From Conexibacter arvalis (GTDB lineage: Bacteria > Actinomycetota > Thermoleophilia > Solirubrobacterales > Solirubrobacteraceae), in NCBI RefSeq assembly GCF_014199525.1, contig NZ_JACHNU010000002.1, forward strand, positions 230,147 to 294,146: a stretch of DNA of 64,000 bases, given 5' to 3'. A program made the translations under genes and the position numbers. Under the pieces are notes generated by a model. It saw only the letters and a program-made list of their open reading frames with translations. It made no database searches and was not told the origin of the DNA. This document shows, piece by piece, positions 43,179 through 57,249 of this stretch (the first letter of the stretch is position 1; every line of letters starts with the position of its first letter).

Positions 43179-44621
43179 CTACCGCGGCGGGGCGGCCTCG
43201 CCGGCCGCCTCGTCGGTCGGCGCCTCCTCCGGCTGCGCGGCCCAGCCGCCGTCGTCGCGAGCGCGCACGACCTCGCCGCTCCAGCCGCGCAGCGGATGGC
43301 GCTCGCGGGCGCGCAGCTCCTCGCACAGCCGCCGCGTCACGAGGTAGGCGACGACCGGCCCGGCGATCGCCGCGCCGCGCAGGAACCAGATCTGCGCCTC
43401 GTAGGAGATCAGCGTGCGGAAGGCGAAGCGGTCGACCGAGCCGGCGAAGAGGATCACGAAGACCCAGGTCGCGAGCGCGGCGAAGCTGGCGGTGCGGCGC
43501 GGGTTGTCGCGCGGCCGGTCGAGCGTCTCGTGTCTGGCCCGGTCGCCCCACCGGCGCTTGTCGATCCACGGCCAGAGGTAGAGGATCCCGAAGACGACGA
43601 GCGGGTAGAGCGCGCCGCCCCAGAAGGGGTTCGGCACGGCCACGTAGTCGCCGAAGCGCACCTCCAGCGGCGGCATCAGCCGCAGCGCGCCGATCAGCCA
43701 GCCAAGGTACCAGTCGGGCTGCGCGCCGTTGGTCGACAGCGCCGTCTCGTACGGGCCCCACAGCCAGATCGGGTTGATCTGCACCAGCCCGCCGAGCAGC
43801 AACAGGAGGCCGGCGACGATCAGGAAGAGGCCGATCGAGCGCAGCGCGTAGGCGGCCCACAGCGGCGTGCCGACGACGGCGCGCTCGCCGCGCGGACCGC
43901 CCGGGAACTGCGTGTGGTGCTGGCGGATCACCTGCACGAGGTGGACCGTCAGCAGCCCGCCGATCGCGACCGGGATCAGCAGCACGTGGAGGATCTCCAT
44001 CCGCGGCCAGATCGCGCTCGACCCCGGGTACTCGCCGCCCCAGAAGAGGATCGCGAGGTCGCCGCCGACGAACGGGATCGAGCCGGCGACCGAGTAGGCG
44101 ATCGCGAGCCCCATCCCGGACAGCAGGTCGTCTATCAGCGAGTAGCCGAGGAAGCCCTCCACGAGCGCGAGCGCGAGCATCGTGACGCCGACGAGGTAGT
44201 TGAGCTCGCGCGGTCTGCGGAAGGCGCCCGTCAGGCAGATGCGGGCGAGGTGGAGCGCGATCGCGACGACGAAGACGTTCGCCGCCCAGTGGTGGGTCTG
44301 GCGCAGCAGGTTGCCGGCCGGCAGGTCGAAGACGATCCGCAGCACCGACTCGTACTGGGCCCCCATCGTCCGCCCCTGCAGCGGCGCGTAGCTGCCGGTG
44401 TACGTGACCGTCTCGTCGCTGGGCACGTAGTTGAGCGACAGGAAGACGCCGGTCGCGACGAGCATCACGAAGGCGTAGAGCGCGATCTCGCCCAGCATGA
44501 ACGACCAGTGGTCGGGGAAGACGTAGCGCAGCGTCGAGCGCAGCAGCGAGCCGGCGCCGAGCCGCTGGTCGACGAAGCGGACCGGATCGCGCACCGGGTC
44601 CGGCCGCGGGACGAGCCTCAC
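43179..44621 (-). CDS. qcrB: Cytochrome bc complex, cytochrome b subunit
   Basis: 480 residues, the fused b6-plus-subunit-IV length. Heme ligands are in LRQTHHWAANVFVVAIALHL and ILHVLLIPVAIGGLLTVHLV, with VIRQHHTQFPGGPRGERA after. The quinol-site motif is QPDWYLGW, the PDWY variant that in published comparisons is associated with menaquinone-using complexes. NPIWLWGPYE and GGALYPLVVFG belong to the subunit-IV part. It takes electrons from quinol and passes them to the Rieske and cytochrome c subunits. The GTG overlaps the Rieske stop (GTGA). It is the last gene of the respiratory operon; no terminator separates it from the convergent gene. Confidence 0.94.
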   Translation of the reverse strand: MRLVPRPDPVRDPVRFVDQRLGAGSLLRSTLRYVFPDHWSFMLGEIALYAFVMLVATGVFLSLNYVPSDETVTYTGSYAPLQGRTMGAQYESVLRIVFDLPAGNLLRQTHHWAANVFVVAIALHLARICLTGAFRRPRELNYLVGVTMLALALVEGFLGYSLIDDLLSGMGLAIAYSVAGSIPFVGGDLAILFWGGEYPGSSAIWPRMEILHVLLIPVAIGGLLTVHLVQVIRQHHTQFPGGPRGERAVVGTPLWAAYALRSIGLFLIVAGLLLLLGGLVQINPIWLWGPYETALSTNGAQPDWYLGWLIGALRLMPPLEVRFGDYVAVPNPFWGGALYPLVVFGILYLWPWIDKRRWGDRARHETLDRPRDNPRRTASFAALATWVFVILFAGSVDRFAFRTLISYEAQIWFLRGAAIAGPVVAYLVTRRLCEELRARERHPLRGWSGEVVRARDDGGWAAQPEEAPTDEAAGEAAPPR

Positions 44622-45628
44622 GCCTCCGTCTCCCGCTCGCCGGCGTAGGAGGGCCCGACCTGCCCGATGAAGCCGCCGGCGGCGACCAGCTCGCCGGCTG
44701 CGTTGACCTGCAGCGGCAGCTGCGGCAGCGGACGGCCGGCCGGCCCGAACAGGACCGCCCCGCCGCGGCGCGGGTCGAACGTCGAGAAGTGGCAGGGGCA
44801 GACGAGCGCCGGCTCCGGCGCGGTCGCCGGATGGAGCGGATGGCGGTACATCGAGACCGCGCAGGAGGCGTGGGTGCAGATCCGCGAGTAGGCGATCACG
44901 CCGCCGGGCGCGGCCGCTCTGCGCGCGGCGCTCATCTCCAGCTCCTCGGGCGCGAAGCGCAGCAGCATCACCGGGGCGTCGAGCGTGTTGCGATCGGCCG
45001 CCTCCGGGAAGGCGAGCACGACCGTCCCCTCCGTGATCTGCTCCGGTCTCAGCGGTCTCCCCTCGCTGTCGACCAGGCGCCGGCCGCGGCGCCACGGGGT
45101 CGCCGTGATCCGGTCGCCGACGGCCGGGCCCAGCGACGCGACCGGGACGACCGCCGCCGCGCCGATCGTCGCGCCGGCCAGCCCGGCGGCGGCGGCGAGC
45201 ATGCCGCGGCGGGAGACGCCCTCGCCGGCCTCGCGGACGATCGCGCCGACGTCGTCGACCTTGCGCTCGTCGGCCAGCTGCTCGTAGGGCTCGCTCGCGG
45301 TCTCCTGCGGGACGACGCGCTTGCCGGCGAAGGCGGCGGCGATCCCGCAGATCACCAGCGCCCCGCCGAGGCAGAGGCCGAGCAGCTGCGTGTCGGGCCG
45401 CACGACGTAGAGGACGACGAAGGCCGCGGCCGCGAGCGCGCCGACGAGCAGCAGCGCGGCGACCAGCAGCTCGGCGCGCGGCGTCGAGGGCGTCTCGCGC
45501 GCGAGCGCGTCCGGCGGCTCGGCGCGACGGGGCGCGGGCGGCTCCTGCGCGCGCCGGCGCGGGCGCAGACGCCGCAGCAGCCGCAGGCCGATCCACGCCA
45601 GCGCGATCCGCAGCCGCGACTCACTCAT
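44618..45628 (-). CDS. qcrA: Rieske iron-sulfur subunit of the bc complex
   Basis: 336 residues. Three hydrophobic helices (AELLVAALLLVGALAAAAFV; LGLCLGGALVICGIAAAFAG; a RRGMLAAAAGLAGATIGAAA segment with a twin-arginine-like RRG start) precede the Rieske domain, the actinobacterial three-helix form. The 2Fe-2S ligands are CTHASC and CPCHFS, in the standard CxHxxC and CPCHxS motifs, near residues 265 and 295. It is the mobile electron carrier from quinol to cytochrome c. Start and stop both overlap the neighbouring genes. Confidence 0.94.
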   Translation of the reverse strand: MSESRLRIALAWIGLRLLRRLRPRRRAQEPPAPRRAEPPDALARETPSTPRAELLVAALLLVGALAAAAFVVLYVVRPDTQLLGLCLGGALVICGIAAAFAGKRVVPQETASEPYEQLADERKVDDVGAIVREAGEGVSRRGMLAAAAGLAGATIGAAAVVPVASLGPAVGDRITATPWRRGRRLVDSEGRPLRPEQITEGTVVLAFPEAADRNTLDAPVMLLRFAPEELEMSAARRAAAPGGVIAYSRICTHASCAVSMYRHPLHPATAPEPALVCPCHFSTFDPRRGGAVLFGPAGRPLPQLPLQVNAAGELVAAGGFIGQVGPSYAGERETEA

Positions 45629-46611
45629 CTCGTCGTCCGCTCCCCGATCAGCCGGATCGTCAGCAGCAGCGCCGCGCCGGCCAGCAGCCACGCGACCATC
45701 CCCTCGGGCACCGGGCCGATGTGGCCGATGCCCCAGCCGCCGACGTCGTCGGGCTGCCGCGTCCACGTGACGTAGCGGGCGAGCGAGTCGACCTGCTCCT
45801 GCGTCAGCTGGTCGCCGAAGGCCGGCATCACGTACGGGCCGATCTCGATCGCCTCCGCGACGTCGAGCGGGCTCGCCTCCTGCAGGCCAGGCACCCACGC
45901 GCCGGTCGTGATGCCGCCGCGCCCGACGATCTGGTGGCAGCCGGCGCACAGCTCGCCGAACACTCTGAAGCCGACGGAGAGGTCGCCGGCGGCCGGGTCG
46001 ACGGACGGGATCGGCGGGCCGCCGAAGCTGCCGACGTAGGCGACGAGCGCCGCGATCTGCCGCTCGTCGTAGAACGGCTCCTTGCGCTGCGGCTCGTCCT
46101 GCGGGTCCTCCATCGGCATCCGCCCGGTCCGCAGGTAGAAGTCGGCCGACGCCGCCCCGACGCCGCGCAGCGACGGCGCGACGTCCTCGATCCCGCGCGC
46201 GTCCTCGCCGTGGCAGCTGGCGCAGCCCGAGAGGAACAGCCGCCGCCCCTCCGCGAGCTGCCCGGGCGTGGCGGACGCGGGGTCGCTCCCGCTCGCGGCG
46301 GCCGGCGCGGGCTCGCTCCCGGTCACGGTCGGCGGGGCTGCTCCGATCGCCGCGGGCGGCGCCGGGCCCGTCGCGGTTCCGGACGCGGCGGGCGATGTCG
46401 GCGTGTTCCCGGTCGCGGCGGGCGGCTCGTCCCCGGCCTGGGCACCGACCGACGGCGCCTGCGAGGCGAGCGCGCCGAGCCCGATCGCGGCGGCGAGCGA
46501 CGCGCAGCCGATCGCCGCCGCGACGCGCACGGGCCGCGGCAGCAGCGGTCGCCGTCGCGCGACCGCGCGCGCCAGACGGCGCGCACGCGACAGATGCCGG
46601 TGTCCGCTCAC
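45625..46611 (-). CDS. qcrC: Diheme cytochrome c subunit of the bc complex
   Basis: 328 residues from a GTG. A basic N-terminus and a hydrophobic helix (RVAAAIGCASLAAAIGLGAL) target it to the membrane; a Pro/Ala/Thr-rich linker of about 65 residues follows. Two heme-binding motifs are present: CASCH near residue 130 and CAGCH near residue 222, with Met ligands possible in RMPMEDP and VMPAFGDQL. A C-terminal helix (VAWLLAGAALLLTIRLI) anchors it, as in actinobacterial QcrC, which shuttles electrons directly to the oxidase. The linker length is unusual and built from simple repeats. Confidence 0.92.
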   Translation of the reverse strand: MSGHRHLSRARRLARAVARRRPLLPRPVRVAAAIGCASLAAAIGLGALASQAPSVGAQAGDEPPAATGNTPTSPAASGTATGPAPPAAIGAAPPTVTGSEPAPAAASGSDPASATPGQLAEGRRLFLSGCASCHGEDARGIEDVAPSLRGVGAASADFYLRTGRMPMEDPQDEPQRKEPFYDERQIAALVAYVGSFGGPPIPSVDPAAGDLSVGFRVFGELCAGCHQIVGRGGITTGAWVPGLQEASPLDVAEAIEIGPYVMPAFGDQLTQEQVDSLARYVTWTRQPDDVGGWGIGHIGPVPEGMVAWLLAGAALLLTIRLIGERTTR

Positions 46612-47663
46612 GCCGAGCCTCCAGTTCGCGGCGTCGAGCCGGCCGGCGGCTGCTCACGCGAGCGCGATCCGTCCGCCCCCGCGCCCGCCCCGCCGGCGCG
46701 CTCGCGCACGAGCTGCCGCGCCTCCACCCCGGCGCCCCCTTCTCGCACGTCGGCCCCCGCGCCCGCCCCGCCGGCGCGTTCACGCACGACCTGCCGCGCC
46801 TCCGCGCCCGCGCCCCGTTCACGCACGACCACCCCCGCGCTCGCCCCGCCGGCGCGCTCGCGCACGAGCTGCCGCTGCTCCTCCGCGAGCACGGCGCGCC
46901 AGCCGATCGCGACGGCGAGCAGCGCCATCAGCGCCGACCCGCCGATCCACATGATCGTCCCGGCGAGGCGCTGGTCGGCGAGCGCGTCGGTCCCGTACCG
47001 CGCCGCGCCGTCGGCGTACGGCGCGTAGACGACGGTCGAGGCGGTCGCGAGCGCGACGCCGACCGCCGTCATCGCCGGCATCGAGGCGAGCACGAGCAGG
47101 ACGCGCACGAGCGGCGAGCGCGCCCGCGGCTGCGGCGGCAGCGCCAGGACCGGGATCCAGAACAGCAGCGCCGCGGTCAGGTAGAGGACGTGCTCGGCGT
47201 CGTGCAGCAGCGGCGAGCGCACGGCCGCGTCGTAGAACGCCGGCAGATGGGTCGCGACGAGCACGACGCTCAGCAGGGCGAGCACGACGATCGGATCGGT
47301 CGCGACGCGCGCCGTGCGTCCGCCGAGCAGCCGCGCCAGCGCCCGCCGCGATGCCGGCGGCAGCGCCCGCAGCGCCAGCGCCTGCGGCCGACCGGCGATC
47401 AGCAGCGGCGGGACCGCGACGAGCAGGACGAGGTGCTGGACCATGTGGACGGAGAGCAGCCGCTCGCCGACGGCGTGCAACCCCGATTCGAGCGCGACCC
47501 CGAGCAGCGCGAGCCCCGCGAGGAAGGCCGCGGTCGACGTCGCCGGCCAGCGGCGCACCCGCCGCACGCCGGCGAGGTAGGCGCCCGCGCAGGCCGCGAG
47601 CGCGAGCATGAGGCCGGGGTCGAACCGCCACTCGCTCAGCAGGTCGCGCGCAAGCGGACTCAC
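46608..47663 (-). CDS. ctaG: Cytochrome oxidase assembly protein CtaG (caa3 type)
   Basis: 351 residues from a GTG. Seven or so transmembrane helices cover residues 15-260: GLMLALAACAGAYLAGVRRV, HMVQHLVLLVAVPPLLIAGR, PLLHDAEHVLYLTAALLFWI and ADQRLAGTIMWIGGSALMAL, with the conserved His-rich motifs HMVQH and HDAEH of the copper-handling CtaG family (Caa3_CtaG). The final 90 residues are a repetitive tail (RERAGGAGAG and VEARQLV) coded by 78-bp tandem repeats and not part of the family. It delivers copper to the oxidase subunits. It overlaps genes at both ends. Confidence 0.9.
   Translation of the reverse strand: MSPLARDLLSEWRFDPGLMLALAACAGAYLAGVRRVRRWPATSTAAFLAGLALLGVALESGLHAVGERLLSVHMVQHLVLLVAVPPLLIAGRPQALALRALPPASRRALARLLGGRTARVATDPIVVLALLSVVLVATHLPAFYDAAVRSPLLHDAEHVLYLTAALLFWIPVLALPPQPRARSPLVRVLLVLASMPAMTAVGVALATASTVVYAPYADGAARYGTDALADQRLAGTIMWIGGSALMALLAVAIGWRAVLAEEQRQLVRERAGGASAGVVVRERGAGAEARQVVRERAGGAGAGADVREGGAGVEARQLVRERAGGAGAGADGSRSREQPPAGSTPRTGGSA
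46655..46874 (-). repeat. Three 78-bp tandem repeats in the tail of ctaG
   Basis: On the minus strand, units start at 46874, 46796 and 46718, exactly 78 bp apart; each encodes 26 residues beginning RQ(L/V)VRERAGGA; the last copy is shorter. The tail adds charged Arg/Glu and Gly/Ala segments in the cytoplasm. It is an internal expansion rather than a mobile element. Confidence 0.85.
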
Positions 47664-48130
47664 CGCGCCTCCTCCCGCCGGCCGCCGGACCCGAACTCCG
47701 GTCGTTCGTACCCCTCTGCGGGGTGCAGACGACCGGAGTTCCCCTCCCGACCGGCCCGCGCGCCGGCCCGCGCCCGCGCCAGCGCCCGCCGCTGCGCCCG
47801 GCCCTCGCGCACGAGCCCGCCGATCGCGAGCAGCGCGAGGCCGCCGCCGATCAGCGCCAGCCACAGCCCCAGCTCGGCGCCGAGCGCTGCCAGCACGATC
47901 GCGACGCCGAGCAGGACCGTCGGCGGGCTGAGATCCGGCAGCGCCCGCACTCCGCCGTGGAGCGCCCGGCCCCAACCGGCCAGCGCGAGCACGACGGCGA
48001 TCGCCGCCATCACCGCGACCGTGCCGCCGAACAGCGCGAGGCTGTCGGCGTCGTCGAGCCCGACGAACAGCAGGCCGACGAGCATGATCGCCGCCATCAG
48101 CGCGCCCCAGCCGAGGAAGACGCGGGTCAC
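47660..48130 (-). CDS. Small membrane subunit, cytochrome-oxidase-subunit-IV-like
   Basis: 156 residues from a GTG overlapping the ctaD stop. Four hydrophobic helices are visible: FLGWGALMAAIMLVGLLFVG, FGGTVAVMAAIAVVLALAGW, VLLGVAIVLAALGAELGLWL and ALIGGGLALLAIGGLV. The position directly after subunit I and before CtaG matches that of the CtaF/subunit IV gene in actinobacteria, but sequence alone does not prove it. The hydrophilic tail (about residues 112-156) has an inverted repeat at DNA level (47693-47741). Confidence 0.6.
   Translation of the reverse strand: MTRVFLGWGALMAAIMLVGLLFVGLDDADSLALFGGTVAVMAAIAVVLALAGWGRALHGGVRALPDLSPPTVLLGVAIVLAALGAELGLWLALIGGGLALLAIGGLVREGRAQRRALARARAGARAGREGNSGRLHPAEGYERPEFGSGGRREEAR
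47693..47741. repeat. Long hairpin inside the 3' end of the subunit-IV-like gene
   Basis: Outer arms GAACTCCGGTCGT at 47693-47705 and its complement at 47729-47741 are perfect over 13 bp; inner arms ACCCC/GGGGT at 47710-47714 and 47720-47724 flank a 5-nt loop, with a symmetric 4-nt internal bulge between. The sequence is translated as part of the protein tail. It could cause partial termination or act as an RNA-processing site between the oxidase and bc-complex halves of the operon. Confidence 0.75.
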
Positions 48131-49806
48131 GGCGCCGGCTCCTCGCGCGCGGCCGGCGCGCGGCGGGCGTCGGCACCGCCGGCCGCCTCCCCCAGCTCCC
48201 GCTCCGCCCGCGACCGCTCCTCGCGCAGGTCGAGCAGCGGCGCGTACGAGCGGACCGGCGGAAGGCGATCGAAGTTGTGGCGCGGCGGCGGCGAGGCGGT
48301 CGCCCACTCGAGCGTCTGCCCGCCCCACGGGTCGGGGCCGGCCGGCTCGCCGATCCGCCGCGAGCGCAGCACGTTGACGACGAACAGCAGGAAGGCGACG
48401 AGCAGCATGTACGCGCCGATCGTCGACAGCAGGTTGAGCCCGTCCCAGTCGCGGAAGGCGGGGTAGTCGGCGACCTGCCGCGGCATCCCGTCGAAGCCGA
48501 GCACGAACATCGGCACGAACGTCAGCAGCGCGCCGACGAACATCAGCGCGCACTGCCAGATCCCGAGCGCCTCCGACAGCCGCCGCCCCGTGACCTTCGG
48601 GAACCAGTGGAAGATCGCGGCGAAGAGGCCGAAGACGGTGCCGCCGAAGAGCGTGTAGTGGAAGTGCGCGACGACGACGTAGGAGTCGTGCGCGTGGTAG
48701 TCGAGCGGCGGCGAGGCGACGAAGACCCCCGACAGCCCGCCGATCAGGAACAGCAGCACGAAGCCGAGCGCGAACAGCATCGGCGTCCGCAGCACGATCC
48801 GCCCGCGCCACATCGTCCCGAGGAAGGCGAAGTACTCGATCCCCGCCGGTATCGCGATCATCGTCGAGGTCAGCGAGAAGAACCTGTTGTTCACGCCCTG
48901 CGTCGTGAACATGTGGTGGGCCCACACGCTCGTCGACAGCGCCGCGAACAGCAGCAGCGACAGGACCGTCACTCTGTAGCCGAAGAAGCGCCGCCGCGAG
49001 AAGGTCGCGATCACCTCCCCGACCGCCCCGACGAGCGGGAAGAAGATCACGTAGACGAGCGGGTGGGCGAAGAACCAGAAGAGGTTCTGGTAGGTGATGC
49101 TGCCGCCGCCGACGGTGAAGACGTCGGTCACGTTGCGGTCGATGAACAGCAGCGCCATCGTCGCCAGCACGACCGGCCAGGCGACGAGCACCATCAGCAG
49201 CGTCGCGACCATCGACCAGCAGAACAGCGGCATCCGCAGCAACGTCATCCCCGGCGCGCGCCGCCGCACGATCGTCGCCATGACCGAGCAGCCGAGCAGC
49301 AGCACCCCGAGTTGCGAGAGCGCGACGCCGAGCACCCACAGGTCGCCGCCGGTCCCCGGCGAGCTGGCGGAGTCCGACAGCGGCAGGAACGCGAACCACG
49401 CCCATCTCGCGGCCCCGCCCTCGGTCAGGAAGCCGCTCCAGACCGTCAGCGCGCCGCCGAGGTAGAGCCAGTAGCCGAGCAGCGCCAGGCGCGGCCAGAC
49501 GATCTCGGCGGCGCCGAGCTGCAGCGGCACGAAGTAGGTCGCGACCCCCATCACGACCGGCGGCGCGAACAGCAGGATCATCGTCGTGCCGTGCATCGTG
49601 AACAGCTGGTTGTAGGCGTCGTGGTCGAGGAACTGCATCCCCGAGTGCGCCAGCTCGGTGCGCATCAGCAACGCGAGGACCCCGCCGGCGAAGAAGAAGC
49701 CGAGCGCCGTCACCGTCGTCGCCAACCCGATCCGCTTGTGGTCGGTCGCCGACAGCAGCTCGACGAGCGTTGGGCGTCGCAGCGACACGCTCGGCGCGGC
49801 GCTCAT
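48127..49806 (-). CDS. ctaD: Heme-copper oxidase subunit I with altered proton channels
   Basis: 559 residues, about 12 helices. Cofactor ligands are all present: low-spin heme His72 (FTMHGTTM), CuB His248 with Tyr252 (FFAHPLVYV), His297/His298 (WAHHMFTT), and the heme pair in VVAHFHYTLFGG. The classical proton-channel residues differ from Rhodobacter numbering: Asp132 is Glu101 (GAAEIVWPRLAL, with Asn139 replaced by Ala108), Glu286 is Leu250, Thr359 is Ala321 and Lys362 is Glu324 (AIPAGIEYF). The rest of the sequence is A-type in character. It reduces O2 to water with electrons from cytochrome c via CuA. A tail of about 60 residues is hydrophilic. Start and stop overlap the neighbours. Confidence 0.93.
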   Translation of the reverse strand: MSAAPSVSLRRPTLVELLSATDHKRIGLATTVTALGFFFAGGVLALLMRTELAHSGMQFLDHDAYNQLFTMHGTTMILLFAPPVVMGVATYFVPLQLGAAEIVWPRLALLGYWLYLGGALTVWSGFLTEGGAARWAWFAFLPLSDSASSPGTGGDLWVLGVALSQLGVLLLGCSVMATIVRRRAPGMTLLRMPLFCWSMVATLLMVLVAWPVVLATMALLFIDRNVTDVFTVGGGSITYQNLFWFFAHPLVYVIFFPLVGAVGEVIATFSRRRFFGYRVTVLSLLLFAALSTSVWAHHMFTTQGVNNRFFSLTSTMIAIPAGIEYFAFLGTMWRGRIVLRTPMLFALGFVLLFLIGGLSGVFVASPPLDYHAHDSYVVVAHFHYTLFGGTVFGLFAAIFHWFPKVTGRRLSEALGIWQCALMFVGALLTFVPMFVLGFDGMPRQVADYPAFRDWDGLNLLSTIGAYMLLVAFLLFVVNVLRSRRIGEPAGPDPWGGQTLEWATASPPPRHNFDRLPPVRSYAPLLDLREERSRAERELGEAAGGADARRAPAAREEPAP

Positions 49807-50483
49807 CTCCCCCGCTCCCGCGTCCAGGCGTCGTAGTCGGCCTGCGACAGCACACGGATGTCGAAGTCCATCTCGGCGTGTCTCAGCCCGCAGAACTGGT
49901 TGCACTGGCCGCCGCTGCGCCAGAAGCCCTGGTCGGGGAAGACGACCGTCATCGTCGTCGTGCGACCGGGGAAGACGTCCTGCTTGAAGCGTCGCTCGGG
50001 AATCCAGATCGCGTGGATCACGTCGAGCGAGGTCATCCGCAGCGTGACCGGCCGGTCCTCGGGCAGCGTCAGCGTCGGCACCCGCAGGTCGGTCCCGATC
50101 TCGCTGATCCCGTGCCGCGGGTAGTCGAAGCGCCAGTTCCAGCGCGCGCCGGTCACGTCGACGAGCTCGGCGTCGGCGGGCGGCTCGCCGCGGTCGAGGC
50201 CCTGCGCGGTCACGCGATAGCCGGGGTCGTCCATCGTGCTGAAGGTCAGCCAGACGAGCACGGCGACGATGCAGGCGACGATCCCGGCGTAGGTCAGCTC
50301 CAGCGGGGTGTTGCCGCTGCGCCCGGGCGCCGGGGCGGCGTCGTCGTCGCCGCGCGCCCGGTAGCGGACGACGAAGACGACGACGAGCACGGCGATCAGC
50401 AGCCAGATCGCGACCCCGATCGCCCAGTAGACGTCGAACAGGTCGGTGAACTCGCGCCGGATGTCGCCGACGCCGTCGCTCAC
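49803..50483 (-). CDS. ctaC: Cytochrome c oxidase subunit II
   Basis: 226 residues from a GTG overlapping the stop of the upstream gene. Two transmembrane helices: DVYWAIGVAIWLLIAVLVVV and ELTYAGIVACIVAVLVWLTF. The CuA domain has VIHAIWIPE (His ligand) and GGQCNQFCGLRHAEMDFD, carrying the C-x3-C-x3-H-x2-M CuA motif near residue 200. No fused cytochrome c domain or lipoprotein signal is present. The protein takes electrons from the bc complex. Adjacent to subunit I as usual. Confidence 0.94.
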   Translation of the reverse strand: MSDGVGDIRREFTDLFDVYWAIGVAIWLLIAVLVVVFVVRYRARGDDDAAPAPGRSGNTPLELTYAGIVACIVAVLVWLTFSTMDDPGYRVTAQGLDRGEPPADAELVDVTGARWNWRFDYPRHGISEIGTDLRVPTLTLPEDRPVTLRMTSLDVIHAIWIPERRFKQDVFPGRTTTMTVVFPDQGFWRSGGQCNQFCGLRHAEMDFDIRVLSQADYDAWTRERGR

Positions 50484-51100
50484 CGCGCCGCCCCCGCGGC
50501 ATGTGCCTCGACGGCCGCCGCGCGCGCGTCGGCGCGGCGTTCCGCCAGTCGCGCGCTCGCCAGCCCGAGCACGAGGCCGTAGAGCGCGAAGGCGGCCCAC
50601 CAGCCCCACGTCGGCAGCGAACGCGACAGCAGGTCGTCGTCCTGCAGCCCGTTCGCGAGCACGTTGACGAGCACCAGCTGGAGCGCGAGGCCGTAGGCGA
50701 CGCCGATCGCGCTCGCGAGCCCCCGCGCGGGGCGGGCGCCGAGGCAGAGGACGACCAGCGCCGCGCCCGGTACGCCGAGCAGCGCGCCGCCGAGCAGCAG
50801 CAGCGCGAGGCCGGCGGCGATCGCGCCGAGGTGGAAGTCGCCGTGGAAGGCGTCGGGCCCGAAGACGAGCGCGGCCGGTGCGGTGATCGCCGTCCAGGTG
50901 CTCGAGCGGATGCCGGTGACCGCGGTGCGCGAGGCGGCGGTCTCGCCGATCGCGGCGAGCAGCACCGTCGCGGCGAGCGCGGCCCGCAGCCCGGCACGCG
51001 ATCCGACGGCCGCGGTCGCCGCGGCCGGCAGCTCCAGCAGCGGCTGCCGGCGGGCCGGCGCCGGAGCGGGGCGCTCAGGTGGACGGTCGACCGCTGCCAT
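50480..51100 (-). CDS. Unknown multi-spanning membrane protein of the oxidase operon
   Basis: 206 residues. After a Pro/Ala-rich N-terminus there are about five hydrophobic helices, including LRAALAATVLLAAIGETAAS, AIAAGLALLLLGGALLGVPG and GWWAAFALYGLVLGLASARL. It stands where a third subunit might be expected before subunit II, but conserved features of oxidase subunit III (such as the W-x-F-H region and seven-helix length) are not seen. It overlaps the gene upstream by 26 bases and the downstream gene by four. It may be an accessory or assembly factor of this oxidase; function unknown. Confidence 0.6.
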   Translation of the reverse strand: MAAVDRPPERPAPAPARRQPLLELPAAATAAVGSRAGLRAALAATVLLAAIGETAASRTAVTGIRSSTWTAITAPAALVFGPDAFHGDFHLGAIAAGLALLLLGGALLGVPGAALVVLCLGARPARGLASAIGVAYGLALQLVLVNVLANGLQDDDLLSRSLPTWGWWAAFALYGLVLGLASARLAERRADARAAAVEAHAAGAAR

Positions 51101-52046
51101 CGCCGCCGCCGATACCCGCAGCCGGCCGGTTCGACACGGCGGCTCCGCCTCCGCTCGCCTCCCAGTTGGCGGCGAGCCGCGCCGCCATCGCGCGCTCGTC
51201 GGCGGCGATCGCGTCGGCGAGCGCGGCGGTGCGCTCGTCGCCGCTCTCGCGCGACAGCCGCTCGACCTGCTCCCACGCCTCCGCCTGGCGACGCTCGTGG
51301 GCGAGCAGCGCCGCGGCGTCGTGCGCCTCGGGATGGCGCCGCAGCCGCGGCGGCTGCGCGGCGAGGTGGGCGGCGGCTCTGGCGGCGGCGTCGCGCCGCC
51401 ATGACGGCCGCCCGCCGAGCTGCGCCAGCCGCGTCCGGATCATCGCCGCGTGACGGTTGGTCTCCTTGTGGTGGAGCGCGAGATCGTGGACCAGCTCCTC
51501 GTCCCGTGCCCGCCAGCGCATCGCGGCCAGCTCTCTCAGCTCCGCCTGCTCGCGCGCGTGCAAGGACTGCAGCGCGTCGATCAGCGCCCTGCGCCGCTCG
51601 GGCGCGAGCTCCGTGCGGTGCCTCCCCTCGCGCGGCGGCGACTCGACCGCCTCGATCCGCCTTGCGCCGCCGGGGCCGATCCCGTAGCGGGCGCGAGCGG
51701 CCGCGCGGTCGGCCGGCGCGAGCCGTTCGCCGACCCGCAGCCGCGGCGCCTGCGCGAGCAGCGGCGCGGTCGCCGCCACGCGGTTCCGCGCCCCGGTCGG
51801 CTCGGCGTCGCGCACGGGCGCGAGCGCGCCCTCGGCCGGCTCGCCGGCGGCCGTCGAATCTTCCGCGCCGCGAACTGCCGCGCTGGCCCCACCGGCCGTC
51901 GCGGCCTGCTCCGGCGCGATCACCAGCCATTCCGGCGCGCCGCTCTCGACGTCGGGGACGACGGCGACGATCGTGCCCAGCGGCGCGTCCCACGGATCCT
52001 GCGCCGCGCGCCCGACCCAGCTCAGCGCCTCGCTCATCGTCTCCAT
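51075..52046 (-). CDS. PRC-barrel-like plus ferritin-like helical protein
   Basis: 323 residues. The ATG at 52046 has AGGAG eight bases before it; an ATG three codons on is less well placed. Residues 15-50 and 90-115 (PWDAPLGTIVAVVPDVESGA, PEWLVIAP, LRVGERLAPADR) look like a PRC-barrel beta domain interrupted by an Ala/Gly insert. Residues 145-305 are a helical bundle with LHAREQAELRELAAMRWRA, LALHHKETNRHAAMIRTRLA, HERRQAEAWEQVERL and IAADERAMAARLAA, resembling a ferritin-like four-helix protein with scattered Glu and His. It lies between the formate dehydrogenase genes and the oxidase genes, cotranscribed with them. A sensor or metal-binding role is speculation. Confidence 0.5.
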   Translation of the reverse strand: METMSEALSWVGRAAQDPWDAPLGTIVAVVPDVESGAPEWLVIAPEQAATAGGASAAVRGAEDSTAAGEPAEGALAPVRDAEPTGARNRVAATAPLLAQAPRLRVGERLAPADRAAARARYGIGPGGARRIEAVESPPREGRHRTELAPERRRALIDALQSLHAREQAELRELAAMRWRARDEELVHDLALHHKETNRHAAMIRTRLAQLGGRPSWRRDAAARAAAHLAAQPPRLRRHPEAHDAAALLAHERRQAEAWEQVERLSRESGDERTAALADAIAADERAMAARLAANWEASGGGAAVSNRPAAGIGGGDGSGRPST

Positions 52047-52083: not shown

Positions 52084-52185
52084 TCAGCCGTCCTCCCGCG
52101 CTCCGCGGTCGCGCGCCGCCGGCGGCGGCGCGCCGCTCCAGCCGCCCGCGCGGGCGCCTCGGACCGCGACGCCGAACGCCGTCAT
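52084..52185 (-). CDS. Candidate 33-codon small ORF coupled to nrfD
   Basis: A frame of 33 codons starts with ATG at 52185, overlapping the nrfD stop in ATGA style, and ends at 52084. The product (MTAFGVAVRGARAGGWSG at the start) is Arg/Ala/Gly-rich with no hydrophobic helix. Only its stop/start overlap supports it; 37 bp separate it from the next gene. It may be untranslated. Confidence 0.3.
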   Translation of the reverse strand: MTAFGVAVRGARAGGWSGAPPPAARDRGAREDG

Positions 52186-53144
52186 CGCGCCCCCTCCGCC
52201 ACCCGTCCGTCGAGCGCTCGCCGGCTGGCGCCGTGGCCGCGGCCGCCGTCGACCCGCTCGCGCTGCGGCCCGACGACGTACTTCGGGTCCCGCGCCGACT
52301 GCAGCCCGGCCTTGAAGACGCTCCAGCGCTCGCAGACCGCGCCGGCCAGCACCATCCCGCCGCCGACCGCCGCGGCGACGCGGCTGCGGGCGCCGGCGGC
52401 GCCGATCAGCAGCGCGCCGCCGACGGTCAGGGCGCGCGCGGCGCGCGCGTAGGTGCCGGCCTGCTCGACGTGGTACGGCTCCCCGACCGCGCCGAGCCAC
52501 TGCTCCATCGCCTGCACCGACAGCAGCTCCGCCGCGGCGCCGGCGAGCGCGACTCGCCGCGCCGGCGCCGCGTGCCGCACCGGCGTGGCGATCGTCGCGG
52601 CCGCGCCGGCGCTCGCGGCGGCGCCGGCGGCGAAGATCGCCGGCAGCTCGCGGCGCGCCCCGTGCCAGGCCGGCACGGCCGTCTGCGCGATCAGCGCCGC
52701 CGTGTACGTCGAGATCGGCAGCCCGACCAGCGCCGCCGCCGGCTTGGCGAGGCGCGCGGGACCGGCCAGCCGGCCCGTCAGGGCGTTCGTCGCCGCCACC
52801 GTCGTCGTCGCGCCGCCCGCGACGAGCAGCCACGAGCCGACGCTCATCGGCGAGGTGACCTTGAACATCCGCAGCATGTTGAGGAAGCGGTGCGGGACGC
52901 CGAGGTCGCTGATCAGCAGCAGCGGGCTGACGCCGATCCCGCCGAGCGCGATCGGCCAGGCGCGGCGCGCGAGCTGCTCGTGGCCGCCCAGCTCGGCGAG
53001 GTAGGCGAGCGCCGCCGATCCGCCGCCGAGGCCGCCGGTGAAGAAGTACCAGGGGATCTCGGGCTTCCAGATCGGCTCCTTGATGACGGGGTTGCCGTGG
53101 TAGGAGCGCTGGGGCGGCCGCGTCGCGCCGGTCGTCGCGCTCAT
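52182..53144 (-). CDS. nrfD: NrfD/PsrC-family membrane anchor of formate dehydrogenase
   Basis: 320 residues with about eight transmembrane helices. The start SYHGNPVIKEPIWKPEIPWY leads to FFTGGLGGGSAALAYLAELG, the typical NrfD N-terminal block, then LISDLGVPHRFLNMLRMFKV with its conserved Asp/Pro/His-Arg quinone-site features. NrfD anchors dicluster-Fe-S complexes to the membrane and passes electrons to quinone. It follows the four-cluster Fe-S subunit with four-base overlap and replaces the cytochrome b FdhI subunit of classic FDH-N. Confidence 0.88.
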   Translation of the reverse strand: MSATTGATRPPQRSYHGNPVIKEPIWKPEIPWYFFTGGLGGGSAALAYLAELGGHEQLARRAWPIALGGIGVSPLLLISDLGVPHRFLNMLRMFKVTSPMSVGSWLLVAGGATTTVAATNALTGRLAGPARLAKPAAALVGLPISTYTAALIAQTAVPAWHGARRELPAIFAAGAAASAGAAATIATPVRHAAPARRVALAGAAAELLSVQAMEQWLGAVGEPYHVEQAGTYARAARALTVGGALLIGAAGARSRVAAAVGGGMVLAGAVCERWSVFKAGLQSARDPKYVVGPQRERVDGGRGHGASRRALDGRVAEGAR

Positions 53145-54046
53145 CGCCGGCCTCCCAGCACCACGGCCGCGAGCGCGGCGCCGAGCGCGGCGGCGGCGAC
53201 GCCGGCGGCCGCCCAGGTCGAGCCGAGGTCGCGCGTCGCGTCGACCGGGTCGGGCGGCAGCCCGTAGACCTCGGGGTCGTCGAGCAGCAGGAAGAAGGCG
53301 CCGGCGCCGCCGATCCCGTCGTCGTCGCCGGCGAGGTAGAGCTGCGCCCGCTCGGCGCCGGCCTCCGCCAGCGCCTCGACCCGCGCCCGGGCCCGCTCGC
53401 GCAGGTCGTCCAGCTCGCCGAACTGGATCGAGTCGGTCGGACAGGCCTGGGCGCAGGCCGGCTCCTGGTCGTCCTTGAGGCGGTCGTAGCAGAGCGTGCA
53501 CTTCCACACGCGGCCGTCGCCCTCGCGCTGGTCGAGCACGCCGAAGGGGCAGGCGGGAACGCAGTAGCCGCAGCCGTTGCAGACGTCCTCCTGCACGACG
53601 ACGGTGCCGAACTCGGTGCGGAAGAGCGCGCCGGTCGGGCAGACCTCCAGGCAGGCGGCCTCGGTGCAGTGCTTGCAGACGTCGGAGGCCATCAGCCAGC
53701 GCAGGCCGTCGCCCTCCTGGTAGGTCTGCAGGCCGGTCTCGGCGACGAGCTGGTCGAGGTTCGCCGCCTCGGCCAGCGAGCGCTCGGCGGCGTCGATCCC
53801 GAGCGGCTTGCGCTGCTCGACGAAGGCGACGTGGCGCCAGCTGTTCGCGCCGAGGTCGACGGTGTTGTCGTAGGAGTCGCCGGTGAAGCCCTGTGGCGAC
53901 TCCGGCACGCGGTTCCACTCCTTGCAGGCGACCTCGCAGGCCTTGCAGCCGATGCAGATCGAGGTGTCGGTGAAGAACCCCATCCGCGGCTTCGCCTCGC
54001 CGTCGTAGGTGCCGGGCCAGGCGTGCGTGCGCAGCCGCTCGCTCAT
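53141..54046 (-). CDS. fdhB: Formate dehydrogenase Fe-S subunit (four 4Fe-4S clusters)
   Basis: 301 residues. Four cysteine groups are visible: CIGCKACEVACKEWN at residue 31, CKHCTEAACLEVCPTGALF, CNGCGYCVPACPFGVL, and CTLCYDRLKDDQEPACAQAC with P after. That is the FdnH/HybA four-cluster ferredoxin layout. A C-terminal hydrophobic helix (WAAAGVAAAALGAALAAVVL) anchors it to the membrane as in FdnH. It carries electrons from the catalytic subunit to NrfD. Its ATG overlaps the fdhA stop. Confidence 0.93.
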   Translation of the reverse strand: MSERLRTHAWPGTYDGEAKPRMGFFTDTSICIGCKACEVACKEWNRVPESPQGFTGDSYDNTVDLGANSWRHVAFVEQRKPLGIDAAERSLAEAANLDQLVAETGLQTYQEGDGLRWLMASDVCKHCTEAACLEVCPTGALFRTEFGTVVVQEDVCNGCGYCVPACPFGVLDQREGDGRVWKCTLCYDRLKDDQEPACAQACPTDSIQFGELDDLRERARARVEALAEAGAERAQLYLAGDDDGIGGAGAFFLLLDDPEVYGLPPDPVDATRDLGSTWAAAGVAAAALGAALAAVVLGGRR

Positions 54047-57000
54047 CGGCCCACCCCCGCTCTGCGGCGGTAGTCGGAGAGCAGCGCCGCCAGCGCCGGG
54101 CCGCGCGGACGGCGGCCGGGGCGGATGTCGCATGTGGCGACCTTGTACTCGGAGATGTGGACGTTGCGATCGAGCGCGAGCCCCAGCAGTTCGTTGGCCG
54201 CGTCGCCCTTCACGAGGCCCTTGCGCCCCCAGTGGTACGGCAGGCCGACGGTGTGCAACGTGCGCCCCTGGACGCGCAGCGGCTTGACGCGCTCGGTCAC
54301 CATCACGCGCGCCTCGATCGCGGCGCGCGTCGTCGCGATCGTCGCCCAGCCGCCGTGCTCCAGGCCGCGCAGCGCGGCGAGCTGCGGGCTGACCTCGCAG
54401 AACAGCTCCGGCTGCAGCTCGGCGAGGTACGGGACGGTGCGCGACATGCCGCCGGCGGTGTGGTGCTCGGTCAGCCGGTAGGTGCCGAGCACGAACGGGA
54501 AGACGTCGGCGCCGGGCTGCGCGTCGGCGGGGTTGTAGGGGTTGCCCGGCCGCTCGAAGCGCTGCCGCGTCGGGCTGGCGCGGACGGCGTAGAGACGGTT
54601 GGGGACCGGCGACTCCTCGGGCTCGTAGTGGGTCGGCAGCGGGCCGTCGACGAGGCCCTGCGGCGCGTACAGCCAGCCGAGGCCGTCCGGGTGGAGGATG
54701 AACGGCGCGTCGCCGCGGATCGCGCTCGTGCCGGTCGCGCCGTCGGGCGGCGTGTAGTCGGGCGGGGTGGTCGGCTCGAAGTCGGGCACGTCGCCGAGCG
54801 ACTGCCAGCTGCCCTCGTCCGCGTCCCACCAGACGTAGCGCTTGCGCTCCGACCACGGTCTCCCCTGCGGGTCGGCGGAGGCGCGGTTGTAGAGGATGTG
54901 GCGGTTGCCGGGCCACGCCCAGCCCCACTCGGGCGCGATCCAGTTCTGCTCGCGGCCGGGCTTCTTGCGGGCGGTCTGGTTGACGCCGTCGGCGTAGATG
55001 CCGGCGTGGATCCACGAGCCGCAGCTCGTCGAGCCGTCGGCTCTCAGCTCCTGGTATCTGGAGACGAATCTGCCGTCGGCGTGGCGGCCGTTGATCTCCT
55101 GCATGACCGCGTCGGCGTCCGGCTCCTGCTTGGGGCCTTGGAGCGGGTAGTCCCAGGTGAGGTCGAGCAGCGGCCGGTCGCGCTGCAGCGGCGAGCCGGC
55201 CAGCCGCGCGCGGATGCGCTGGCCGAGCTGGTAGGCGAACCACAGGTCCGAGCGGCAGTCGCCCGGCGGCTCGACGGCCTTGTGGTGCCATTGCAGGAGG
55301 CGCTGCGTGTTCGTGAAGGTGCCGTCCTTCTCGGTGTGGGCGGCGGCCGGGAGGAAGAAGACCTCGGTGGCGATCTCCTCCGGCCGCGTCTCGCCGGCCT
55401 CGATCTCGGGCGAGTCGTGCCAGAAGGCGGCGGTCTCGATCTCGCTCATGTCGCGCACGACCAGCCATTCGAGGTTCGCGAGCGCTCTGCGCATGAGGCC
55501 GGAGTTGGCCGAGCCGACGGCCGGGTTCTGGCCGATCACGACGAACCCTCTCGTGCGGCCGTCGAGCATCCGCAGCATCATCGGGTAGTGCGAGTGGTCG
55601 CCGTCGATCCGCGGCAGGTAGGAGTAGGCGAACTGGTTGTCGGCGGTCGCCGCCTCGCCCCACCACGCCTTCAGCAGGCTGGTGACGTAGGCGTCGAGCG
55701 ATCCCCAGGCGCCGGTGTCGGGACCGTTCAGCTCGACGAATCTGGCGAGGTCGTCGCGCGAGGTCGGGTGCGGCATCGGGATGTAGCCCGGCAGGATGTC
55801 GTAGAGCGTCGGGATGTCGGTCGAGCCCTGGATGTTCGCGTGGCCGCGGAGGGCCAGCACCCCGCCGCCGGGGCGGCCGACGTTGCCGAGCAGCAGCTGG
55901 ATGATCGAGGCGGCGCGGATCATCTGGACGCCGACGGTGTGCTGGGTCCAGCCGACCGCGTAGCAGATCGCCCCGGTCCGCTCGGGGCCGGAGTTGCGGC
56001 AGAGGGTCTCGGCGATCTGCAGGAAGCGCTCGCGCGGGACGCCGCAGACCTCCTCGACCATCTCGGGCGTGTAGCGGGCGTAGTGGCGGCGGAGGATCTG
56101 GAAGACGCAGCGCGGATGCTGGAGGGTCCAGTCCTCCTCCGGCGGCTCACCGTGCTCGAGCTTCATGCCGTGGGCGCCGTGGGCCTGGTCGCCGGAGACG
56201 TCGCCGGTCTGCTCCCGCTTGCCGGCGGTCAGCTCACCGCTGGTGCCGGCGTAGCCCCAGCTGTCGACGCGATAGAGGCCGTCTTCCTGCTCGAAGCCGG
56301 AGAAGTAGCCGTCGAGCTCGTCGGTGTCGCGGAAGCTCTCCTTGATGATCACGCGCGCGTTGGTGTAGTGGCGCACGTACTCGGTGAACTCCCGACGGCC
56401 GCTCATGATGTGGTTGATGACCGCGCCGAGGAAGACGATGTCGGTGCCCGGCCGCAGCGGCGCGTGCAGGTCGGCCATCGCGCTCGTGCGGGTGAAGCGC
56501 GGGTCGACGTGCATCACGGTCGCGCCCCGCTCCTTGGCCTCGATCACCCATTGGAAGCCGACCGGGTGCTGCTCGGCCATGTTCGAGCCCATGATCAGGA
56601 TCGAGTCGGCGTTGGCGAGGTCCTGCTGGAAGGTCGTCGCGCCGCCGCGCCCGAACGAGGTCCCCAGACCGGGGACCGTGGAGGAGTGTCATATGCGCGC
56701 CTGGTTCTCGATCGAGACCGCCCCGAGGGCCGTGAACAGCTTCTTGAGCAGGTAGTTCTCCTCGCTGTCGAGCGTCGCCCCGCCGAGCGCCGCGATCCCG
56801 AGCGTCCGCCGCAGCGGCTCGCCCCTGGAGTTCTGGTCCTCCCACGTCTCGGCGCGGGTTCTGAGGACCCGGTCGGCGATCATCTCCATCGCCGTGTCGA
56901 GGTCGAGCGACTCCCACTCGGTGCCGTGGGGCCGCCGGTATCTGACCTGGTACTCGCGCAGCGGGCTGTTGACGTACGCCTCGGAGGCGGCGCCCTTCGG

Positions 57001-57249
57001 ACAGAGCCGCCCGCGCGAGATCGGCGAGTCGGGATCGCCCTCGATCTGCACGACCTTCTCGTCCTTGACGTAGACCCGCTGCCCGCAGCCGACCGCGCAG
57101 TACGGGCAGATCGACTGCACGACGCGGTCGGCGGTGCGCGTCCGCGGCGCGAGCCGCTCCGACCGCCGCGAGCGGGCCGAGCGGCCCAGCCCGAGCGGGT
57201 CGGTTCCGAGCTGTCTGACGAAGCCGGGCAGCGGGACGCGCGGGGCCAT
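54043..57249 (-). CDS. fdhA: Formate dehydrogenase catalytic subunit, selenocysteine-containing
   Basis: 1068 residues when the in-frame TGA at 56689-56691 is read as selenocysteine 187. Before it: SICPYCAVGCGQRV, GRLCPKGA (4Fe-4S), and ENQARI; after it: HSSTVPGLGTSFGRGG and LIMGSNMAEQHPVGFQW, exactly where catalytic Sec/Cys-His sits in formate dehydrogenases (Sec followed by His). The remainder follows the long FdnG/FdoG-type molybdopterin subunit: WTQHTVGVQMIRA, GNVGRPGGGVLALRGHANIQ and a GLPYHWGRKGLVKGDAANEL end. The molybdenum or tungsten cofactor oxidises formate to CO2. No Tat signal is visible, so the active site probably faces the cytoplasm. An ordinary gene caller would split it into two frames. 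A SECIS-like hairpin follows the TGA. Confidence 0.93.
56659..56691 (-). promoter_or_regulatory. bSECIS element and UGA selenocysteine codon of fdhA
   Basis: On the minus strand, TGA (56691-56689) is followed after 11 nt by GGTCCCC-GGTCT-GGGGACC: a perfect 7-bp stem (56677-56671 with 56665-56659) capped by the 5-nt loop GGUCU. Eighteen nucleotides separate the UGA from the loop. The E. coli fdhF SECIS has the same GGUCU loop recognised by SelB at nearly the same distance. SelA, SelB, SelD and tRNA-Sec must be encoded elsewhere in the genome. Confidence 0.92.

What the first reader, a model, noticed from the sequence alone, without database searches (positions are those of the whole stretch)
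48127..49806. Oxidase subunit I keeps all cofactor ligands but has lost canonical D- and K-channel residues
Aligning by eye to the A-type Rhodobacter enzyme: Asp132 to Glu101, Asn139 to Ala108, Glu286 to Leu250 (HPLVY instead of HPEVY), Thr359 to Ala321, Lys362 to Glu324. Flanking segments align well, so this is not misalignment. It is neither A1 (Glu286), A2 (Tyr-Ser) nor evidently B type. The enzyme may pump few protons, or use a different route. Combined with FDH in the same operon, it may be an uncoupled or low-yield electron sink.
Basis: partly seen in the sequence, partly recalled or inferred. Interest (0 to 1): 0.85.

Follow-up and report, generated by a model that had tools for sequence, protein, structure and literature searches.

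The report
Respiratory oxidase with rewired proton channels
A group of actinobacteria carries an oxygen-consuming respiratory enzyme, often encoded with a formate-oxidising enzyme, that keeps its whole catalytic centre but has lost one of its two standard proton channels and turned the key lysine of the other into a glutamate, so it probably conserves less energy than its relatives or does so by a different route.

Summary
Thirty related proteins form one clade (SH-aLRT 100) inside actinobacterial A1 oxidases. All 30 keep the haem and CuB histidines, Trp280 and the cross-linking tyrosine. All eight published D-channel positions are altered. Lys362 is Glu in 30/30, Thr359 is Ala in 30/30, and position 365 is Asp/Glu in 27/30. 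The 127 other oxidases aligned keep these channels almost without exception. So the K-channel is rebuilt with an acid, not simply lost. The gene sits in a conserved CoxII-CoxI-CtaG-bcc operon. Formate dehydrogenase heads it here and co-occurs in 22/29 carriers versus 69/370 other genomes of the class. Best reading: a working accessory O2 reductase that takes protons through one remodelled K-like path, with absent or reduced pumping. Pumping, electrogenicity and O2 reduction were not measured. D-channel-free oxidases (B, C types) and K-channel loss in archaeal family A are known, so this is a new variant of a known kind.

The parts
48127..49806 (-). Oxidase subunit I (CoxI/CtaD-like), 559 aa, channel-remodelled clade
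   Evidence: Pfam COX1 443.9 bits; residue tables; tree
49717..49719 (-). T30, D-channel Tyr33 (E. coli Y61) lost
   Evidence: Tyr in 126/127 canonical rows, 0/30 in clade
49537..49539 (-). T90, D-channel Asn121 lost
   Evidence: Asn 127/127 canonical, 0/30 clade
49504..49506 (-). E101, D-channel entrance Asp132; freely variable in the clade (E,R,G,S,D,Q,A,N,T)
49483..49485 (-). A108, D-channel Asn139 lost
   Evidence: Asn 2/30 in clade, 127/127 canonical
49285..49287 (-). S174, D-channel Asn207 lost (C/S/T in clade)
49051..49065 (-). H248-P-L250-V-Y252: CuB His and cross-link Tyr kept, Glu286 replaced by Leu (Val in 29/30)
49018..49020 (-). G263, K-channel Ser299 lost (A/G/L in 29/30)
48826..48846 (-). 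A321-G-I-E324-Y-F-A327: K-channel Thr359 to Ala and Lys362 to Glu (30/30 each); position 365 Asp/Glu in 27/30, Ala here
49803..50483 (-). Subunit II with CuA ligands (DVIHA, CNQFCGLRHAEM) and the K-path entry Glu (NTPLELTY)
   Evidence: Pfam COX2; clade alignment; PDB alignment
47660..48130 (-). Small membrane protein, 156 aa, overlaps the CoxI stop by 4 nt; the L159 counterpart is a sub-threshold match to actinobacterial subunit IV (PF12270)
46608..47663 (-). CtaG-type assembly factor with a repetitive C-terminal tail
   Evidence: Pfam PF09678 217 bits; repeats
45625..46611 (-). QcrC-like dihaem cytochrome cc, two CxxCH
   Evidence: Pfam, PDB match to mycobacterial bc1 cytochrome c, NCBIfam 187.7 against cut-off 200
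44618..45628 (-). QcrA-like Rieske protein
   Evidence: Pfam QcrA_N and Rieske
43179..44582 (-). QcrB-like cytochrome b, 467 aa
   Evidence: NCBIfam bc1_QcrB_actin 506.6 bits, cut-off 500; PDB
50480..51100 (-). Membrane protein of unknown family; counterparts in L145 and L150
51075..52046 (-). Ferritin-like/DUF892 protein in the gene series
52182..53144 (-). NrfD-like membrane subunit (probable quinone-reducing FDH subunit)
   Evidence: Pfam NrfD 33 bits
53141..54046 (-). FDH Fe-S subunit
   Evidence: Pfam Fer4_11, TIGR01582 FDH-beta, below cut-off
54043..57249 (-). Formate dehydrogenase catalytic subunit, probable selenoprotein (in-frame TGA at 56689-56691)
   Evidence: NCBIfam NF041513 above cut-off

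Best explanation
This is a working accessory cytochrome aa3-type O2 reductase descended from the A1 subfamily. In this genome it is probably fed formate electrons in the order FDH, menaquinone, the operon's own bcc complex, CuA, low-spin haem, binuclear centre. The D-channel has been abandoned and its residues drift. The K-channel has been converted from Lys/Thr/Ser to an acidic path: subunit II Glu, then Asp/Glu-365 where present, then invariant Glu-362, then Tyr-288. This path supplies the substrate protons from the cytoplasm. By analogy with B- and C-type oxidases, which also have only a K-like path, pumping should be below 1 H+/e- and may be zero, while charge separation by substrate-proton uptake is kept. 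Shown here: the residue pattern, its fixation, the intact cofactor sites, the operon and the FDH association. Inferred: O2 as substrate, cytoplasmic proton uptake through Glu-362, and reduced pumping.
For: All metal ligands, Trp280, Tyr288 and Arg481 are invariant in 30/30 clade members. CuA ligands and, in most members, the K-entry Glu of subunit II are kept. All eight published D-channel positions (list in PMC3084760 Table 2) are altered, and Asp132 takes nine different residues. K362E and T359A are fixed in 30/30, with Asp/Glu at 365 in 27/30. dN/dS is 0.14-0.5 in close pairs, so the protein is under constraint. The CoxII-CoxI-CtaG-bcc order recurs in the clade loci long enough to show it (CtaG not detected in L160). 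FDH occurs in 22/29 carriers against 69/370 others (p 3e-10). Published mechanism: in family A all pumped protons use the D-channel; B and C types have one K-like channel and lower stoichiometry (PMC8079940). The AF2 model (pLDDT 90) matches mycobacterial aa3 subunit I (TM 0.92) and R. sphaeroides 1m56 (rmsd 1.6).
Against: No biochemical data. I found no report that a buried Glu in place of Lys362 conducts protons. Ser299 and Thr359, which also line the K-path, are lost, so the path could be blocked. In this window position 365 is Ala, so the second acid is missing here. The subunit II entry Glu is missing in two clade members (L152, L163).
Confidence: 0.6

Rival explanations
1. The enzyme reduces O2 but takes its protons from the periplasmic side, as cytochrome c NO reductases do, and is non-electrogenic. 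Clade-specific polar residues on the periplasmic half of helix VIII (Thr315; Tyr at position 309 in most members) would be part of that rearrangement.
For: D-channel gone and K-path Ser and Thr lost. Thr at 315 (26/30) and Tyr at 309 (27/30; Phe in the window) are clade-specific.
Against: Glu is fixed at the K-path lysine position and the subunit II entry Glu is kept in most members, which points to a maintained cytoplasmic entry. The cross-link Tyr and CuA are kept, unlike NO reductases.
Confidence: 0.12
2. Full proton pumping (about 1 H+/e-) is retained through an unrecognised replacement path.
For: The region near the haem propionates (Arg481, Asp407) is kept.
Against: Known family A pumping goes through the D-channel with Glu286 or the Tyr-Ser pair; neither is present. 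Mostly hydrophobic residues fill the Asn121, Asn139 and Glu286 sites.
Confidence: 0.1
3. It is not an O2 reductase in vivo but a NO, peroxide or other small-molecule reductase, or a redox sensor.
For: Nearly always an extra oxidase: 28 of 29 carrier genomes also show another oxidase subunit I. A ferritin-like protein shares the gene series.
Against: Histidine-tyrosine pair, Trp280 and CuA are all kept. The NOR signature (H-X-Arom-X-E, PMC3084760) is absent. It has its own bcc complex.
Confidence: 0.08
4. A decaying, low-value paralogue whose channels are lost by relaxed selection.
For: The Asp132 position looks unconstrained; an accessory copy only.
Against: E324 and A321 are fixed in 30/30, cofactor sites are invariant, dN/dS is below 1, and the operon is conserved across several families and orders.
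Confidence: 0.07
5. Alignment artefact or sequencing error; an ordinary A1 oxidase.
For: None found.
Against: Gapless alignment with 7rh5/6adq in the channel helices; 30 different sequences.
Confidence: 0.01

Closest known systems
Actinobacterial aa3 oxidase (CtaD/CtaC) of the bcc-aa3 III2IV2 supercomplex, M. smegmatis/M. tuberculosis
   Same: Fold (TM 0.92, about 48-49% identity), CuA, haem and CuB ligands, cross-link Tyr, dihaem QcrC, QcrA and QcrB partners
   Different: D-channel absent, Glu286 to Val/Leu, Lys362 to Glu, Thr359 to Ala; subunits I and II below NCBIfam cut-offs; no subunit III gene beside it; bcc and oxidase genes in one operon headed by FDH here
A2-type (caa3-like) oxidases, e.g. 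the second oxidase of this genome (L002)
   Same: No Glu286
   Different: A2 keeps Asp132, Asn121, Asn139 and Lys362 and has the Tyr-Ser pair before the CuB His; the clade has Gly/Ala in place of the Ser and lacks the rest
B-type (ba3) and C-type (cbb3) oxidases
   Same: No D-channel; expected to rely on one K-like path
   Different: Only a distant sequence match (ba3 E about 1e-5 against 1e-167 for A1); K-path residues there are Thr/Ser/Tyr, here Glu and Asp
Archaeal family A oxidases with K-channel variants (PMC8239418)
   Same: Precedent for K-channel change inside family A
   Different: That paper counts seven implied K-channel losses under one of its hypotheses for archaeal COX1; the clade here is bacterial and combines fixed Lys-to-Glu with loss of the D-channel. 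Its supplementary residue lists were not available to me

Membership tests
Haem-copper oxidase superfamily, family A | Six His ligands, cross-linkable His-Tyr pair in HPxVY, COX1 fold | tested here: met
A1 subtype | XGHPEVY with Glu286 | tested here: not met
   HPVVY in 29/30, HPLVY in window
A1 subtype | D-channel residues Asp132, Asn121, Asn139, Asn207, Tyr33, Ser142, Ser201 | tested here: not met
   none kept in the window (Asp132 is Glu)
A1 subtype | K-channel Lys362, Thr359, Ser299, Tyr288 | tested here: not met
   Only Tyr288 kept
A1 subtype | Phylogenetic descent from A1 | tested here: met
   Nested among actinobacterial and Chloroflexota A1 rows (midpoint root, quick tree); clade support also 100 with channel columns masked
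A2 subtype | YSHPxVY (Tyr-Ser pair) with D-channel | tested here: not met
   F/Y then G/A before His
B type | B-type subunit I sequence family and Thr/Ser/Tyr K-path | tested here: not met
   (SoxB model 70.6 against cut-off 700)
NO reductase | H-X-Arom-X-E motif in place of HPxVY | tested here: not met
Proton-pumping oxidase | Measured net H+ pumping | not testable with these tools
   needs purified enzyme or cells
bcc-aa3 supercomplex system | Dihaem QcrC, QcrA and QcrB genes with the oxidase genes | tested here: met
   (QcrC just below its NCBIfam cut-off)
bcc-aa3 supercomplex system | Physical III2IV2 complex | not testable with these tools
   needs purification or cryo-EM

The most novel reading that the evidence does not exclude
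An A-family oxidase lineage has convergently become a single-channel enzyme: an invariant glutamate (with a second acid in most members) in the former K-channel carries all substrate protons and, as in B and C types, a reduced number of pumped protons, giving a natural test of whether the D-channel is needed for pumping in a family A framework.
Probability: 0.3. Interest if true: 0.8.

Novelty: new variant of a known kind. Interest (0 to 1): 0.62.

Why it matters
Mutants of the D- and K-channels are a main source of evidence for how these enzymes pump protons, and many are impaired enzymes. Here evolution has removed the whole D-channel and swapped the K-channel lysine for an acid in a lineage that stays under selection. 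Measuring H+/e- in one member would ask directly whether a family A oxidase can pump, or stay electrogenic, with one acidic path. It also suggests a dedicated formate-to-oxygen chain in a class of actinobacteria.

Tried and rejected
Misalignment or frameshift: rejected. B-type or NOR identity: rejected. Subunit III loss as supporting evidence: no COX3 lies beside the clade gene in 19 genomes, but in the own genome the only COX3 sits beside the A2 oxidase, and some carrier genomes have no COX3 hit at all, so this is not clade-specific and I do not use it. Members outside the class: none among 396 genomes sampled across the phylum, none in 350 genomes of the phylum of the Chloroflexota locus; this is sampling, not proof. 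Other dehydrogenases replacing FDH beside the operon in FDH-free loci: the neighbours scanned were unrelated, such as aconitase, trehalase-like hydrolases and a sugar transporter. Literature on HPVVY, K362E/K354E or channel-less bacterial A oxidases: nothing relevant found in the held library. Promoter and terminator scan uninformative in this high-GC DNA.

Full report
WHAT IS THERE. The gene at 48127-49806 (minus) encodes a 559-aa oxidase subunit I. It lies in a tight minus-strand gene series. FdhA-FdhB-NrfD overlap by 4 nt each; so do the membrane protein, CoxII, CoxI, small protein, CtaG, QcrC and QcrA genes in turn (coordinates derived, start codons partly my choice). QcrB follows after about 35 nt. 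Between the two blocks lies a ferritin-like gene after a gap of about 135 nt. This looks like one operon running from formate dehydrogenase to a bcc-oxidase pair.

CHECK OF THE OBSERVATION. The best solved relatives are the mycobacterial aa3 subunits I (E 1.5e-167) and the alignment has no gaps in the relevant helices. Testing every D- and K-channel residue listed in PMC3084760 shows more: all eight D-channel positions and three of four K-channel positions are changed; only the cross-link tyrosine is kept. The haem and CuB ligands, Trp280, Asp407 and Arg481 are intact. Arg482 is Gln in this window but Arg in the other 29 clade members.

A CLADE, NOT A SINGLE ODDITY. The same genome has two canonical oxidases, one A1 (L001) and one A2 (L002). 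Searching relatives and then 399 genomes of the class with a profile of the clade gave 29 genomes that carry the altered form, about 7% (a 30th hit, L144, is a canonical A2 enzyme). Thirty clade sequences were compared with 127 others. The trait is all-or-nothing: Glu at 362, Ala at 359 and Val/Leu at 286 in 30/30, against Lys 126/127, Thr 127/127, and Glu or the A2-type Ala in 127/127. The 30 form one clade with SH-aLRT 100, also after masking 28 informative columns. It is nested inside actinobacterial and Chloroflexota A1 enzymes in a quick, midpoint-rooted tree. No members were found in 396 genomes sampled across the phylum or 350 genomes of the phylum of the Chloroflexota locus.

LOSS VERSUS CONVERSION. 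The D-channel side looks abandoned: nine different residues at Asp132, and mostly hydrophobics at Asn121 and Tyr33. One member (L143) keeps Asp132 and Asn139 and another (L010) keeps Asn139, so these losses are not uniform. The K-channel side looks converted: Glu is fixed where Lys was, Tyr follows it in 30/30, and position 365 is Asp or Glu in 27/30 (Ala in this window). The subunit II glutamate at the K-path entrance is kept in most members. Losses among conserved columns are concentrated on channel residues (7 of 8 against 6 of 88, p 1e-6; single-descent caveat). Close pairs show dN/dS 0.14-0.5 (NG86, high-GC caveat).

PARTNERS. CoxII, CoxI, CtaG, cytochrome cc, Rieske and cytochrome b recur in the clade loci; CtaG was not detected in L160 and short contigs cut some loci. 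QcrB passes the NCBIfam cut-off for actinobacterial bc1; QcrC matches the mycobacterial dihaem subunit. Carrier genomes show at least one other oxidase subunit I in 28 of 29 cases. FDH of the NF041513 type occurs in 22 of 29 carriers and 69 of 370 others (p 3e-10, not corrected for phylogeny), and lies near the oxidase operon in about ten carriers from three families.

MECHANISM. In family A all pumped protons are reported to use the D-channel, and B/C types with a single K-like channel pump less (PMC8079940). Glu286 is the branching point in A1 and a Tyr-Ser pair replaces it in A2 (PMC8361435). Neither is present. I therefore infer a working O2 reductase with one remodelled K-like path and reduced or no pumping. 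Because electrons come through a bcc complex, the formate-to-O2 chain should still conserve energy.

KNOWN OR NEW. D-channel-free oxidases (B, C) and K-channel variants in archaeal family A (PMC8239418) are precedents. I found no report in the held literature of a bacterial A1-derived clade with the D-channel gone and Lys replaced by Glu; subscription papers are largely outside that library. The protein falls below the NCBIfam cut-offs for CtaD and actinobacterial aa3 (583 against 671; 605 against 880), so those curated models do not name it. Rating: new variant of a known kind.

Noticed in passing
window 56689-56691 (-), in FdhA 54043-57249: In-frame TGA at the selenocysteine site of formate dehydrogenase, followed by a GGTCCCC-GGTCT-GGGGACC hairpin with a GGUCU loop as in known bacterial SECIS elements (loop resemblance from memory; fold not better than shuffles). 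The genome has a tRNA-Sec match of 67 bits on another contig near a second FDH.
   Followed up: partly
window 46670-46875: 78-nt tandem repeat (2.6 copies) encoding a repetitive charged C-terminal tail on CtaG.
   Followed up: no
L180 (G494): An otherwise canonical A1 oxidase with Lys362 replaced by Leu and position 365 by Val while the D-channel is intact: an independent K-channel change.
   Followed up: no
window 51075-52046: Ferritin-like/DUF892 protein inside the FDH-oxidase gene series, with a counterpart in L149.
   Followed up: no
window 50480-51100: Membrane protein of no known family between the ferritin-like gene and CoxII, with counterparts in L145 and L150.
   Followed up: partly
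window 42084-42180: 15-nt tandem repeat, 6.5 copies at 96% match, inside a plus-strand ORF.
   Followed up: no
window 48475-48477 (CoxI residue 444) and the CuA motif of CoxII (49803-50483): Window-specific oddities: Arg482 to Gln in subunit I (29/30 clade members keep Arg) and Gln in place of Glu in the CuA CxExC motif (most members keep Glu).
   Followed up: no
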